NCBI RefSeq assembly: GCF_036226405.1
Contig: NZ_CP108464.1
Coordinates: 6,572,001 to 6,636,000 of the forward strand
Direction of reading: 5' to 3'
Source of the DNA: Streptomyces sp. NBC_01260
GTDB lineage: Bacteria; Actinomycetota; Actinomycetes; Streptomycetales; Streptomycetaceae
DNA: 64,000 nucleotides
A program made the translations under genes and the position numbers. Below, piece by piece: positions 831 through 7,857 of this stretch (within the stretch, counting starts at the first letter, position 1; every line of letters starts with the position of its first letter). A model generated the notes under the pieces. That model made no database searches, was not told the origin of the DNA, and saw only the letters and a program-made list of their open reading frames with translations.

Positions 831-3832
<3,002 letters not shown>

Positions 3833-3836
<4 letters not shown>

Positions 3837-5146
3837 GCCCCCGCGCGCAGCCCGCCCCCTCCGCCCGCGCTCCCCGGCCCGTCGCCCGGTCCCGGCCGGG
3901 CCCCGACGACCTGCGGCGGACCTTCGAGGCGGTACCCGCGCGGACGTCCGGCGACGACGAGCCGTTCGCGGACAGCTGGTGGGGCCGGTCCTGGGTGGCG
4001 GCGCTGGAAGCCCTCTCGATGGACGCGGCGAGACTCGCCCGCGGCCGTGCGTACGCGGACGGCGGGCATGTCGCCGCGGTCACCGTCACCCCCGGCCGCG
4101 TCGTCGCCTACGTGCACGGCAGCCGCCCCCGGCCCTACCGCGCCGAACTGCGGCTGCGCACCCTCACCGACGCCGACTGGGACACCTTCCTCGACGCGGT
4201 CGCCGCCCGCCCCGGCCACCTTGCCGCGCTGCTCACCAAGGAGATGCCGCACTCCCTGGCCGACACGGCGGCCGCCTCCGGGGTCGCGCTGCTCCCTGCG
4301 GCGAACGACCTGGACCCCAGCTGCTCCTGCCCCGACCACGGCTGGCCCTGCAAGCACGTGTCGGCGCTCTGCTACCAGATGGCCCGGCTCCTGGACGCCG
4401 ATCCGTTCGTCCTGCTGCTCCTGCGCGGCCGGGGCGAGCGCGAACTCCTGGAGGACCTGGGCCACCGCAACGCCGCGCACTCCGCACGGGAGCGGCCCGA
4501 GGCCCCCGCCGCCCCCTCCGTACCGGCGCAGGACGCGCTCGCCGACCGCTTCCTGCCTCCGCTGCCCGCCCCGTTCCCGGTGGAGCCGCACCCCGGGCAG
4601 CCGCCGTCGTACCCGAGCCTGCCCGGCAGCCGGGACCCGCTCGCCCTCGACCAGCTCGCCACGGACGCGGCCGCCCGCGCCCATGCCCTGCTCACCACCG
4701 GCCTCGACCCGCTCGCCGGGCTCACCCCCTGGCAGGACGCGGTCCGGCTGGCAGCCGCCCGCCCCACCGCGGGGCTCACCGCCACCACCCGCGCCCTCTA
4801 CCGCGAACTGGCGTCCGCCACCGGCCGCAACACCACCGACCTGGCCCGCGCCGTCGCCGCCTGGCGCCAGGGCGGGGCCGAGGGGCTGGACGTCCTGGAA
4901 ACGCCGTGGGACCCCCCGGCGGGCCCGTTCGACCGGGCCCGCCCGGCTCTCGCAGCCGCCGGATTCCCCCGCTTCCAGCCCTGGCGCAACCAGCTCACCC
5001 ACCCCGGCGGCACGCTCCAGCTCCGCTTCGGCCACGACGGCCGCTGGTACGGCTACGAGTCCGACCCGGGCCAGGACGAGTGGTGGCCGCGCGCCGCACC
5101 GGACTTTGACCCGGTGGGCGCACTCCTGGAGCTCAGCGGGGGCTGA
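3833..5146 (+). CDS. SWIM zinc-finger protein, partner of the SNF2 helicase
   Basis: A 437-aa protein with the SWIM signature CSCPDHGWPCKH at about residues 163-174 (CxCxnCxH zinc ligands), a fold associated with DNA or protein binding. An N-terminal conserved block (FADSWWGRSWVAALE) precedes it, and the C-terminal 200 residues are Ala/Pro-rich. The frame continues upstream, but the ATG at 3833 overlaps the helicase stop and is the natural start. Its coupling to the Snf2 gene suggests it targets or regulates that motor. Family assignment is strong; the function is inferred from context. Confidence 0.9.
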
Positions 5147-5459: not shown

Positions 5460-6055
5460 GCGGCCTGCCCCCTGCTGATCGGTGTCCGGTGCTCCGGTAC
5501 CCGGCCGCGGCACAGTACCCGACTGTTCAGGGCCGGTGCGGGGCGGGCGGTACAGCGTCGACGGGGGCCGCGGCGGAACCCGGCGGAACCGGTTCATGCC
5601 GCAGCAGCGCCCGCATCCGGACGGCCCGGCGATCAGGTCGAGCAGCAGCATCGGGTCCCCATCTTTGTCGATGAAGGCGAGGAACTGGCGGTCGGTCACA
5701 TCCGGCCCACCGCCGGGCCGTTCGGTCCCGAAGAGCAGCCGGGTCCCGGCCGGGTTCCTCTCGCCGTTGGAGTGGGAGAGGCGGGAGAGGCGGGAGAGGC
5801 GGGAGAGGCGAGGGAGCCGGGGCATGGGGAAAGGCGTGGGGAAACCCTTCGTTCCAGGTGCGGGGGAGAGGGCGCGGACGCGCGGGACTCACTGTGGCAA
5901 CTGGCCCCCGCCGGACGGCGGCCGAACAGGGGCGCCGCCGGGAAGCCACCCGAACGGACCGCCGCGCACAGGCGCACCGGACGGCGCGCCTGTGCGCATC
6001 CGGTGCGGCAAAAACCGCTGGTGCAGGGCGCGTTGCTGTTGCTAGCTTCCTGGAC
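5460..6055. other. Intergenic region with no supported gene
   Basis: About 600 bases between divergent genes. It holds the extended reverse frame of the small membrane protein, a 9-bp tandem repeat at 5774-5809 and, close to 6056, a possible -10 box TAGCTT (6043-6048) for the next gene. I see no RNA gene or convincing further ORF. Confidence 0.5.
5774..5809. repeat. 9-bp tandem repeat, four perfect copies
   Basis: GGGAGAGGC repeated four times without a mismatch. Read on the reverse strand in the open frame it would encode an Ser-Arg-Leu repeat, but this part is probably not translated. Confidence 0.85.
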
Positions 6056-6787
6056 GTGGCGAAACTCAATCAGATCATCGCAGTGGAGAAGGGCGTCAAG
6101 TCCAAGGCTCATCAGGACCTGACGGCGGCGCATCACGGCCTCCAGAAGGCCGGTCTGCTGGCCGGGATCTCCCGGACCTACCAGCCGAAGGACGAGGAGG
6201 GCGAGCAGTTGCCGCCCGAGTCGACGCCGGTGCAGATCAAGGCCGAGGATGTGCTGCGCGACACGGCGGTGACCCTCACCCGGCTCTTCGACGTGACCGC
6301 CACCAAGGACTGGGCGAACTGCGCGGCCCGTGCCGACATCTCGGTCGACGGCCGGGTGCTGGTGGCCGGCGTTCCGGTGTCGTATCTGCTCTTCCTGGAG
6401 AAGCAGCTCACGGACATCACCACCTTCATCCGCAAGCTGCCGGTGCTCGAAGCCTCGGAGGCCTGGGCACAGGACCCGTCCACCGACTCCTGGAAGACCG
6501 AGCCGGTGCGGACCCTGCGCACCAAGAAGGTGCCCCGCAACCACGTGAAGGCGGAGGCCACCGAGAAGCACCCGGCCCAGGTCGAGGTGTACTACGAGGA
6601 CGTTCCGATCGGCTACTGGACGACCGTGAAGTTCTCCGGGGCGCTGCCCGCACGGCGGATCAACGAACTGACCGACCGCGTCGAGAAGCTCCAGCAGGCT
6701 GTCAAGTTCGCCCGCGAGGAGGCCAACGGCGTGGACGTCACGGACCAGCGGGTGGGTGATGCGGTCTTCGGTTACCTCTTCGGGTGA
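6056..6787 (+). CDS. Conserved protein of unknown function next to tRNA-like RNAs
   Basis: 243 aa, start GTG at 6056 (VAKLNQIIAVEKGVKSKAH). No ribosome binding site is visible. A TAGCTT box ends 7 bases before the GTG, so the mRNA is probably leaderless. The protein is soluble, without signal or membrane segments. It has conserved-looking blocks FDVTATKDWANCAARADI, VPVSYLLFLEKQLTD and KFSGALPARRINEL, then a helical end rich in Lys/Glu (EKLQQAVKFAREEAN). From memory, similar proteins occur in actinobacteria and their phages, but I cannot check this. It is followed by a 10-bp hairpin and two permuted tRNA-like elements, so a role in handling RNA is possible; that is inference only. Confidence 0.75.
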   Translation: MAKLNQIIAVEKGVKSKAHQDLTAAHHGLQKAGLLAGISRTYQPKDEEGEQLPPESTPVQIKAEDVLRDTAVTLTRLFDVTATKDWANCAARADISVDGRVLVAGVPVSYLLFLEKQLTDITTFIRKLPVLEASEAWAQDPSTDSWKTEPVRTLRTKKVPRNHVKAEATEKHPAQVEVYYEDVPIGYWTTVKFSGALPARRINELTDRVEKLQQAVKFAREEANGVDVTDQRVGDAVFGYLFG

Positions 6788-6800
6788 CCGGCCATGGAAT

Positions 6801-6827
6801 CCCCGGCGGCGGTCGAAGCCGCCGGGG
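6801..6827 (+). terminator. Perfect 10-bp hairpin after the 243-aa protein gene
   Basis: CCCCGGCGGC (6801-6810) pairs perfectly with 6818-6827 around a 7-base loop, 13 bases after the stop codon. It separates the protein gene from the RNA elements. Its 3' strand ends GCCGGGG, by coincidence or descent identical to the acceptor strand of the first tRNA-like element. Confidence 0.7.
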
Positions 6828-6851
6828 TGCGCGAGGAGCGCAAAGCTGAAA

Positions 6852-6977
6852 CTGAAGTTTGTCGTGACGACGCGGTTCCGGTGGAGGTTCGAGTCCTCCC
6901 CCCGGCACTTCCGTACCTTCTTACGGATGCGGGCCGGGGTGGCCCAACTGGCAGAGGCAGGCCGCGATCAATCTCAG
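6852..6977 (+). ncRNA. Circularly permuted tRNA-like RNA, element 1
   Basis: A complete tRNA cloverleaf is present with its halves in reverse order. First come anticodon-stem 3' strand CGGTT (6873-6877), variable loop CCGGT, T-stem GGAGG/CCTCC around TTCGAGT (6883-6899), acceptor strand CCCCGGC (6900-6906) and A73. A 25-base linker with its own hairpin (6910-6927) follows. Then acceptor strand GCCGGGG (6933-6939), TG, D-arm GCC..GGC with the GG pair (6942-6958), A26 and GGCCG (6960-6964). Acceptor pairing is 7/7. Outside the anticodon stem, CTGAAGTT (6852-6859) pairs with AATCTCAG (6970-6977). The T-loop fits TTCRANY. It may be a permuted tRNA precursor or a Y-RNA-like tRNA mimic. There is no clear anticodon loop. 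Confidence 0.72.
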
Positions 6978-7032
6978 ACTCTTGCTCCAGACTCAGCATG
7001 CGCCGCCTATCGCCGAATCGACCGGGCCCGTG

Positions 7033-7128
7033 CCCGTGTGCGTCGAGATGCCGGTTCGACTCCGGCCCGTGGAGCTTCGGTCCGCGGTCGTCTAAAGGCA
7101 GGACGCGACGACATAAAACTGACACGGG
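7033..7128 (+). ncRNA. Circularly permuted tRNA-like RNA, element 2 (Y-RNA-like)
   Basis: Same permuted order as element 1. Anticodon-stem strand CGTCG (7041-7045), AGAT, T-arm GCCGG/CCGGC around TTCGACT (7050-7066), acceptor strand CCGTGGA (7067-7073). A cap follows in which C7075-G7080 closes a UUCG tetraloop. Then acceptor TCCGCGG (7081-7087; 7 bp with one G-U), TC, D-arm GTCT/GGAC with a GG-containing loop (7090-7104), G26 and CGACG (7106-7110), which pairs 5/5 with 7041-7045. CCCGTGT (7033-7039) pairs with ACACGGG (7122-7128) to close the RNA. The D-arm resembles that of tRNA-Glu. A tRNA fold whose acceptor end is capped and whose ends leave from the anticodon position is the known plan of bacterial YrlA-type Y RNAs. 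Confidence 0.72.
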
Positions 7129-7168
7129 ACCTTAAAAGTGTCGGCGTGCCGTACAGGTGGCAATCACA

Positions 7169-7199
7169 GGGCTCGGGGGCCGGCTACGCCCCCGGGCCC
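7169..7199. terminator. 12-bp hairpin behind the tRNA-like elements
   Basis: GGGCTCGGGGGC (7169-7180) pairs with 7188-7199 (one G-U) around a 7-base loop. It lies between tRNA-like element 2 and the end of the reverse-strand gene at 7222, so it could end transcription from both sides. Confidence 0.6.
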
Positions 7200-7221
7200 G
7201 CTCCCGTTCGGGGCCGCTGTG

Positions 7222-7857
7222 TCATGCCCGCACGCGCAGCGAGACCCCGCGCCCGGCGAAGAAGCGCTCGAACTCGGCCAGCGGGAGCTCCGCCGACCGG
7301 GTCGCGGCCGTCGTCCCGGACGGGTTGTGGAAGTGGACGCCCGTGCCGTCGGCCGTACGGGCGGTCAGGAGCACCAGGTGCCCGCCCCGTCCCGGTGCGG
7401 GCTGCCGCGGGCGGCGGATCGCGTAGTGCACGGAGGCCATGACGGACCGGCCCTCGTCCAGCAGGGGCGGGATCTCCTCCGGCGAGAGGTGCCGGTGGAC
7501 GGTGGCGTCGAGGCCGTGCCTCTCCTGTACGTACGCGGCGAAGGGGGCGTAGACCAGGCCCCGGATCGCGCCGTCGGGGTCCTCGGTGTACGCGCCGTAC
7601 CCGAGCGCCCCGTCGCGCAGCGCGAAGAGGGGCGGGGCGCCGGCGCCGAGTGCCATGCGCAGACAGGTCATCCCGCACAGATGGCCCGCCCAGCGCGCGT
7701 ACTCCGCGGGCGACTTCGCGCCCGACTCGGCCCACGCGGGGTCGGCGGCCGGGTCGAGCCCGTCCTCGACGATCGGCCCGACGAGCTCGAACGAGGCGAA
7801 CTGGGTGTGGACCGGCACCTGGCAGGTGGGGCAGCTGGGGCAGTTCACGATCGGCAT
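7222..7857 (-). CDS. C39-like cysteine peptidase-fold protein
   Basis: 211 aa, no signal peptide. The layout fits a papain-like/C39 fold: LCGMTCLRMAL near residue 60 (candidate nucleophile Cys), GGHLVLLTA near 160 (His) and HNPSG near 178 (Asn). The N-terminus MPIVNCPSCPTC is Cys-rich and may bind metal. There is no ABC transporter domain, so it is not a bacteriocin exporter. It lies about 20 bases downstream of the aminotransferase gene on the same strand, probably in one transcript. Substrate unknown; it may be a non-proteolytic member of the fold. Confidence 0.7.
   Translation of the reverse strand: MPIVNCPSCPTCQVPVHTQFASFELVGPIVEDGLDPAADPAWAESGAKSPAEYARWAGHLCGMTCLRMALGAGAPPLFALRDGALGYGAYTEDPDGAIRGLVYAPFAAYVQERHGLDATVHRHLSPEEIPPLLDEGRSVMASVHYAIRRPRQPAPGRGGHLVLLTARTADGTGVHFHNPSGTTAATRSAELPLAEFERFFAGRGVSLRVRA

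What the first reader, a model, noticed from the sequence alone, without database searches (positions are those of the whole stretch)
6852..7128. Two tandem circularly permuted tRNA-like RNAs
Read linearly, neither tRNA-like half fits its neighbour. Read with the 3' half first, both elements give full cloverleaves: 7-bp acceptor stems (6900-6906 with 6933-6939; 7067-7073 with 7081-7087), consensus T-loops TTCGAGT and TTCGACT, D-arms with GG, and 5-bp anticodon stems. Element 2 caps its acceptor stem with a C-UUCG-G tetraloop; element 1 uses a 25-base hairpin linker. In both, a further helix closes the RNA where the anticodon loop should be. Permuted tRNA genes are known from red algae and archaea, and bacterial YrlA Y RNAs have a capped, permuted tRNA module. 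A tandem pair of two different ones in a Streptomyces-like chromosome, with different cap types, is unusual. No Ro60 (TROVE) or RtcB gene is in the window.
Basis: partly seen in the sequence, partly recalled or inferred. Interest (0 to 1): 0.92.

Follow-up and report, generated by a model that had tools for sequence, protein, structure and literature searches.

The report
Two-armed tRNA-mimic RNA with protein partner
Next to a gene of unknown function sits one conserved RNA that carries two 'inside-out' tRNA shapes; the same gene-RNA pair turns up in large phages and in several groups of bacteria, which suggests an undescribed RNA-protein machine that imitates tRNA.

Summary
Both permuted tRNA modules lie at the given coordinates, and their stems are kept by compensatory changes. 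They are not two RNAs but two arms of one RNA of about 400 nt (about 6797-7200) with a conserved core and no Rfam match at gathering score. The RNA is tied to the upstream gene, DUF7873 (PF25283). Of 61 related genomes, 32 have DUF7873; the RNA is full-length in 31 of these, cut by a contig end in one, and in none of the other 29. Of 198 genomes across the phylum, the same 6 have both and 192 neither. The pair also occurs in phages and in Myxococcota, Chloroflexi, Planctomycetota, Armatimonadota and Acidobacteria. In Herpetosiphon aurantiacus gene and RNA lie 1.8 Mb apart, so the RNA acts in trans. The closest known RNA is YrlA, but this genome has no Ro60 match. Best explanation: a Ro60-independent, Y-RNA-like ribonucleoprotein whose two tRNA-shaped arms dock onto a tRNA-binding enzyme as tether or decoy. 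The target is unknown.

The parts
6056..6787 (+). DUF7873 protein gene (PF25283), likely start GTG 6056 (the ORF is open from 5858)
   Evidence: Pfam 389 bits over residues 68-308 of the ORF; phage relatives begin at the matching place, M-x-K-L-N-Q; the exact start is inferred
6797..7200 (+). the whole structured RNA (ends inferred)
   Evidence: conserved stretch in relatives; MFE -199.2 kcal/mol, z -2.62, 2 of 100 shuffles fold as well
6801..6827 (+). 5' hairpin P0 (10 bp)
   Evidence: fold; a hairpin stands there in relatives too (read by eye)
6836..6839 (+). core helix P1a, 5' strand (pairs with 6984-6987)
   Evidence: covariation of columns 22-25 with 154-157
6871..6966 (+). arm 1: permuted tRNA-like module (anticodon stem 6871-6877/6960-6966, T-arm 6883-6899, acceptor 6900-6906/6933-6939, linker 6907-6932, D-arm 6942-6958)
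6984..6987 (+). core helix P1a, 3' strand, in the conserved UUGCUCC/UCGCUCC stretch
7002..7007 (+). proposed closing helix P3, 5' strand (with 7156-7161)
   Evidence: complementary here; not supported by covariation, so inferred only
7011..7016 (+). core helix P4, 5' strand (with 7141-7146)
   Evidence: 6 of 6 pairs show changes on both sides (helix 1)
7017..7023 (+). conserved AUCGACC stretch of the core
   Evidence: alignments
7024..7032 (+). core helix P5, 5' strand (with 7123-7131; 8 of 9 pairs in the window)
   Evidence: 8 of 8 modelled pairs show changes on both sides (helix 2)
7041..7110 (+). arm 2: permuted tRNA-like module (anticodon stem 7041-7045/7106-7110, T-arm 7050-7066, acceptor 7067-7073/7081-7087, C-UUCG-G cap 7074-7080, D-arm 7090-7104)
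7123..7131 (+). core helix P5, 3' strand
7132..7138 (+). conserved UUAAA(C)G stretch of the core
   Evidence: alignments
7141..7146 (+). core helix P4, 3' strand
7156..7161 (+). proposed closing helix P3, 3' strand
   Evidence: inferred; not supported by covariation
7169..7199 (+). 3' terminal hairpin without a T run, possibly a terminator
   Evidence: fold; conserved hairpin in many relatives (by eye); the terminator scan found none

Best explanation
The locus encodes a two-part ribonucleoprotein: the DUF7873 protein and one structured RNA of about 400 nt. SHOWN by comparison: the RNA carries two tRNA-shaped arms, each attached through its anticodon stem; the chain enters at the anticodon end, runs through T-arm and acceptor, is closed over at the acceptor end and returns through the D-arm. 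There is no anticodon loop, so the arms cannot decode. SHOWN: the RNA is found where the protein is found, also where the two are unlinked, so it acts in trans. INFERRED: DUF7873 binds the conserved core. INFERRED: the arms, with consensus T- and D-loops, dock onto an enzyme that grips tRNA elbows or acceptor ends, so that the RNA works as tether or decoy, as YrlA Y RNAs are reported to do with Ro60/Rsr and PNPase. In phages this could shield or redirect tRNAs or turn a host nuclease to the phage's use. The target is not known.
For: Covariation of both arms and core helices: 28 of 30 pairs of domain 2 changed on both sides, 94.6% of cells paired against 68.4% shuffled and 39-46% when slid; anticodon stems 4.65 and 5.18 bp against 3.17 and 3.29 for strands swapped between loci. 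Co-occurrence with DUF7873: 32 genomes with, 29 without, RNA full-length in 31 plus one cut at a contig end against 0; 6 with and 192 without, 6 against 0. Of 15 DUF7873 loci without a module just downstream, 14 have the RNA elsewhere in the locus, genome or record. In trans in Herpetosiphon. Topology as in YrlA and match of the arm model to Ro60-linked RNAs of other Streptomyces. No anticodon loop.
Against: No transcript, binding or target data. No Ro60 in this genome, so the YrlA analogy rests on shape. DUF7873 has no known RNA-binding fold by the searches made and near-neutral net charge. C74 is conserved and many linkers start NCCA, which a pure scaffold does not need. Arm 1 is missing in 4 of 28 aligned loci. 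R1 was trained on some of the genomes searched and kinship is not corrected for.
Confidence: 0.55

Rival explanations
1. Processed multi-piece RNA, like the permuted two-piece tmRNA: RNase P and a 3' nuclease open the closed acceptor ends, leaving nicked tRNA-like arms with real 3'-NCCA ends that could be aminoacylated and enter the ribosome.
For: Linker begins NCCA in 57 of 164 (arm 1) and 41 of 164 (arm 2); C74 in 137 and 157 of 164; N73 and N-1 can pair in only 48 and 36 of 164. Part of the permuted beta-tmRNA model matches arm 1 (17.5 bits, E 0.0016). A review says permuted tmRNA transcripts are processed into two RNAs (PMC10085705, passages).
Against: 84 of 164 loci have NCCA in neither arm and only 18 in both; many linkers are 4-8 nt caps, some with UUCG. 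The genome has an ordinary tmRNA. No tag reading frame was identified, though none was searched for systematically across relatives.
Confidence: 0.2
2. Decoy for tRNA-attacking nucleases: the arms offer tRNA elbow and acceptor but no anticodon loop, and so occupy anticodon nucleases without being cut; phages carry it to protect tRNAs, bacteria have kept it. (A special case of the best explanation.)
For: No anticodon loop; tRNA genes near 48 of 90 viral loci against 5 of 73 chromosomal ones. A paper proposes that YrlA's tRNA-like domain could inhibit an anticodon nuclease competitively (PMC7790460, passages).
Against: Large phages often carry tRNA genes anyway; the core and DUF7873 are not explained; no constant nuclease neighbour.
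Confidence: 0.2
3. Genuine permuted tRNA genes whose transcripts are circularised and trimmed to working tRNAs, as in red algae and one archaeon.
For: Order of halves and short intervening sequence as in those genes (PMC3978253, passages); CCA in part of the linkers.
Against: Anticodon stems run on into further helices and no anticodon loop is formed; the arms sit in a conserved larger RNA; stable short caps in many.
Confidence: 0.03
4. A canonical Ro60-bound Y RNA.
For: Same module topology; sub-threshold YrlA match.
Against: No TROVE match in the window's genome; 10 of the 32 genomes with DUF7873 have none; score far below gathering; Ro60-linked YrlA-like RNAs of other Streptomyces are separate loci.
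Confidence: 0.03
5. Untranslated cis-regulatory tail of DUF7873, or remains of a tandem tRNA array.
For: Usually directly downstream of the gene; ordinary tandem tRNAs can imitate a permuted tRNA.
Against: Unlinked in Herpetosiphon and some phages; covariation kept across phyla; no linear tRNA called.
Confidence: 0.02

Closest known systems
YrlA bacterial Y RNA (Rfam RF02553) with Ro60/Rsr and PNPase
   Same: Permuted tRNA-like module (T-arm, closed acceptor, D-arm) standing on a stem where the anticodon loop would be; no decoding.
   Different: Two modules on one RNA instead of one; different conserved core; partner gene DUF7873 instead of Ro60, which is absent from this genome; score far below the YrlA gathering score.
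Permuted two-piece tmRNA (beta_tmRNA RF01850 and relatives)
   Same: 3' half of the tRNA-like part comes before the 5' half, joined at the acceptor end; CCA encoded in part of the linkers.
   Different: Two tRNA-like parts, no tag frame identified, often short stable caps; the genome has a normal tmRNA.
Circularly permuted tRNA genes of algae and an archaeon
   Same: Order of the halves and short intervening sequence.
   Different: No anticodon loop; the arms are parts of a larger conserved RNA; bacterial and phage distribution.

Membership tests
YrlA / bacterial Y RNA | Reaches the Rfam gathering score (69 bits) | tested here: not met
   No match at gathering; 19.4 bits, E 0.16
YrlA / bacterial Y RNA | Encoded with, or in a genome having, Ro60/Rsr (TROVE, PF05731) | tested here: not met
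   No match in the window's genome; of 32 genomes with DUF7873, 22 have a (partial) TROVE match and 10 have none
YrlA / bacterial Y RNA | Permuted tRNA-like module on a stem | tested here: met
   here two modules
YrlA / bacterial Y RNA | Binds Ro60 and PNPase; T- and D-loops modified by TruB and DusA | not testable with these tools
   Features taken from PMC8394870 (passages)
Two-piece tmRNA | Reaches a tmRNA model's gathering score | tested here: not met
   No match at gathering; partial 17.5 bits to beta_tmRNA (84 needed)
Two-piece tmRNA | Encodes a tag peptide | not tested
   No systematic search for a conserved tag frame was made
Two-piece tmRNA | Linker removed, mature CCA end charged | not testable with these tools
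   NCCA in 57 and 41 of 164 linkers keeps it possible
Permuted tRNA genes | Anticodon loop restored when the ends are joined | tested here: not met
   Anticodon-stem helices at least 6 bp long in 36 and 49 of 109 loci, continuing past the loop position; in the window arm 1 has 7 pairs, arm 2 has 5
DUF7873 (PF25283), the upstream protein | Reaches the Pfam gathering score (27 bits) | tested here: met
   389.2 bits
Known RNA-binding protein folds, for DUF7873 | Convincing structural match of the model | tested here: inconclusive

The most novel reading that the evidence does not exclude
DUF7873 and this RNA form a categorically new class of ribonucleoprotein, shared by phages and several bacterial phyla, in which two anticodon-less tRNA mimics on one RNA engage two tRNA sites at once (for instance neighbouring ribosomal sites or a dimeric tRNA enzyme) in order to seize or protect the translation machinery.
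Probability: 0.35. Interest if true: 0.96.

Novelty: new variant of a known kind. Interest (0 to 1): 0.88.

Why it matters
It turns one odd intergenic stretch into a widespread RNA family with a dedicated protein. 7306 relatives of the protein were found among the 7999 candidates scored; the family bears only a DUF name, and the RNA has no Rfam match at gathering score. If right, permuted tRNA mimicry is not limited to Ro60 Y RNAs and tmRNA, DUF7873 gets a likely role as partner of a tRNA-mimic RNA, and there are direct tests of how large phages and filamentous or otherwise complex bacteria handle tRNAs or tRNA-binding enzymes.

Tried and rejected
Chance and tRNA decay: rejected by covariation. 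Coding function of the stretch: disfavoured by single-base indels between close relatives. Strict Y RNA: rejected. Conserved neighbour genes besides DUF7873: none among 168 loci; the second-largest cluster (60 loci) looks like reading frames antisense to the locus and the next holds 13 loci. Families for DUF7873: no NCBIfam match for its ORF, no PHROGs match, no PADLOC match; PDB by sequence only E 0.09 and 0.17. Fold searches: no convincing relative; one BFVD row at E 3.3e-4 with TM-scores of about 0.2. Absence from those lists is no proof of a new fold. Sigma-70 promoter and terminator scan of 5800-7300: nothing. P3 and an inner P1b helix: not supported by covariation in my alignment. Literature, open-licence PMC only: 'DUF7873' in no paper; searches on permuted tRNA, tRNA-like RNAs, YrlA and Ro60 with phage gave listings and passages without this RNA; one listed paper (PMC10454642) had only a reference entry. 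A caution found on the way: a tandem tRNA-Asn pair scores 38.4 bits with YrlA and 49.7 with R1, so partial hits prove little.

Full report
The observation. A detector for the order 'T-arm, acceptor 3' strand, linker, acceptor 5' strand, D-arm' finds both elements with 7 of 7 acceptor pairs; elsewhere in the 64-kb window it gives two weaker hits on the + strand and two on the - strand. Rfam has no match at gathering score. ARAGORN reports only a '???' tRNA at 6821-6908. The element-2 linker is a C-UUCG-G cap after one unpaired base; the element-1 linker is 26 nt and can form a hairpin.

Relatives. DNA search found matches in 25 of 61 related genomes; one of them, G031, is a 35-base piece in a genome without DUF7873, and I do not count it as a relative. 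Four records of the plasmid collection match too. An alignment of 28 loci, anchored on the end of the upstream gene, shows the same two modules with changed stems, conserved stretches between and after them, and four loci (L010, L013, L017, L018) in which module 1 alone is missing. That upstream gene encodes DUF7873 (PF25283, 389 bits in the window).

The family is broad. tblastn with the protein hits 73 of 50,697 phage records, under the names Vibrio, Gordonia, Rhizobium, Klebsiella, Serratia, Arthrobacter, Pseudanabaena, Rhodococcus and Microcoleus. I opened seven of them. Six have two modules within 900 nt after the gene. In four of these (L064, L065, L068, L070) the stretch is an unannotated gap; in GodonK (L066) and Keelan (L067) it overlaps a short annotated hypothetical gene. 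The Microcoleus phage (L069) has only a doubtful module there but a full-length R1 match of 31.8 bits about 2 kb downstream. Over all 250 loci with DUF7873 (of 252 held), none were found in 15, one in 65, two in 166 and three in 4; reverse complements give one in 8 of 250 and shuffles one in 5 of 250, never two. These loci are not independent: L001-L029 and L034-L063 overlap within genomes, and some viral loci are duplicates. Of the 15 without a detected module, 8 have the RNA elsewhere in the fetched stretch, 4 elsewhere in the genome and 2 elsewhere in the phage record; L101, at the end of an 11-kb fragment, has none.

Structure. Of 164 loci with both modules in register I kept 109 after removing near-duplicates. 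The strongest covarying column pairs are nearly all in acceptor, T and D stems and in three core helices, P1a, P4 and P5. The detector itself required at least 6 of 7 acceptor pairs, 4 of 5 T pairs and a D stem, so for these the number of pair types is the evidence (77 and 119 distinct acceptor pairs in 167 and 214 modules), and the core helices and anticodon stems are the cleaner test. Anticodon stems average 4.65 and 5.18 contiguous pairs against 3.17 and 3.29 when strands are swapped between loci (sd 0.10 and 0.11, 200 rounds). On a 45-sequence alignment of domain 2 (45 of 63 eligible loci, chosen for diversity), 28 of 30 pairs show changes on both sides; none of 500 shuffles reaches the observed value of any of the five measures, and sliding partners drops the covariation score from 0.730 to 0.12-0.15. 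P3 and an inner P1b helix were not supported. Unconstrained folding of 6797-7205 gives both arms, P4, most of P5 and the terminal hairpins (z -2.62; 2 of 100 shuffles fold as well).

The acceptor end. NCCA follows the acceptor in 57 of 164 and 41 of 164 modules; C74 is present in 137 and 157 of 164; N73 and N-1 could pair in 48 and 36 of 164; a C74:G-2 pair is possible in 71 and 75 of 164 (a looser sorting gave NCCA in 54 of 167 and 60 of 214). Many ends are thus capped by a short loop while others read like a tRNA end. NCCA in both arms is commoner in phage or viral loci (16 of 64) than in chromosomal ones (2 of 100). This keeps the processing rival alive.

Partnership with DUF7873. A covariance model of domain 2 (R1) was searched in the same 61 genomes as PF25283. 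Full-length hits occur in 31 genomes and a hit cut by the contig end in one more (G051), together exactly the 32 genomes with PF25283; the other 29 have only partial hits, of at most 52.1 bits. In 198 genomes drawn over the phylum the same 6, all of the window's genus, have both and 192 have neither, at E 1e-12 for the RNA. The Fisher p-values ignore kinship, R1 was trained on some of these loci, and a few genomes are in both draws, so they are indicative only. More independent is: 14 genomes reached through loci not used to train R1; 14 of 14 have a full-length hit, the weakest 49.2 bits. Four of these (three Herpetosiphon, one Chloroflexi MAG) have no RNA beside the gene and yet have full-length hits elsewhere at 111-126 bits. 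In H. aurantiacus both lie on the 6.35-Mb chromosome, the gene near 3.008 Mb and the RNA at 1.172 Mb. The RNA therefore acts in trans.

Partial hits and a caution. A 49.7-bit partial R1 hit and a 38.4-bit YrlA hit in the window's own genome (G000:C1:5877.4 kb) are a tandem pair of ordinary tRNA-Asn genes. Other partial hits (model positions 65-121) lie about 0.9-1.2 kb from TROVE matches; three regions that I fetched (L284-L286) hold two permuted modules each, with YrlA scores of 31-41 bits, below gathering. By position they look like the Ro60-linked Y RNAs of those Streptomyces, but the score alone does not show it. The window's genome has no TROVE match, has RtcB about 1.9 Mb away and a normal tmRNA.

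The protein. 7306 relatives were found among the 7999 candidates scored. In 58 aligned sequences 15 positions are invariant. AlphaFold gives mean pLDDT 91.8 and pTM 0.67 without a convincing structural relative. Net charge is near zero in most. No other gene is constant nearby. tRNA genes stand near 48 of 90 viral loci against 5 of 73 chromosomal ones; tRNA-bearing large phages may simply be common among the carriers.

Interpretation. The module topology is that of YrlA, described as a tRNA-like domain that binds PNPase while the stem binds Rsr/Ro60, and as a substrate of DusA and TruB (PMC8394870, passages; PMC7790460, passages; the primary papers and reviews were not held). A paper on RNA permutations names hammerhead, twister, 5S rRNA, group II introns, tmRNA, rRNA, SRP RNA and tRNA genes as known circular permutations (PMC10085705, passages). 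A jumbo-phage survey mentions TROVE proteins with a tRNA-like partner (PMC7824862, passages), and a Vibrio jumbo-phage paper a Ro60-related protein (PMC7765460, passages). None of the passages that I saw describes a two-armed RNA or DUF7873. The tRNA-shaped arms and the pairing with DUF7873 are shown by comparison; binding, tethering and target are inferred. It works most like a Y RNA but is not filed as one, because the Rfam score and the presence of Ro60 were tested and not met.

Noticed in passing
L284, L285, L286 (minus strand; regions of genomes G033, G016, G013): Pairs of permuted tRNA modules about 0.9-1.2 kb from TROVE matches in other Streptomyces, with sub-gathering YrlA scores of 31-41 bits: probably unannotated Ro60-linked Y RNAs.
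   Followed up: partly
L283:359-510 (G000:C1:5877358-5877509): A tandem tRNA-Asn pair imitates a permuted tRNA and scores 38.4 bits with YrlA and 49.7 bits with R1: a source of false positives.
   Followed up: yes
window 831-5143: SNF2 helicase of the SCO1167/SCO6262 family (above its NCBIfam cut-off) overlapping a SWIM zinc-finger ORF, upstream of DUF7873.
   Followed up: no
L090 and L091, between DUF7873 and the RNA: The RNA lies further downstream than usual, behind a stretch that looks like an inserted HNH-type reading frame (the HNH label is by eye, not by a search).
   Followed up: no
L066:875-1403: Gordonia phage GodonK carries a full tmRNA gene (90.3 bits) near its tRNA cluster and this locus; it is not among the annotated features listed.
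   Followed up: no
L010, L013, L017, L018: Arm 1 is missing while the core and arm 2 stay, so arm 1 may be dispensable or lost.
   Followed up: partly
G038:C1 near 3.31 Mb and 6.40 Mb: One genome holds two copies of DUF7873, each with its own full-length RNA hit beside it.
   Followed up: no
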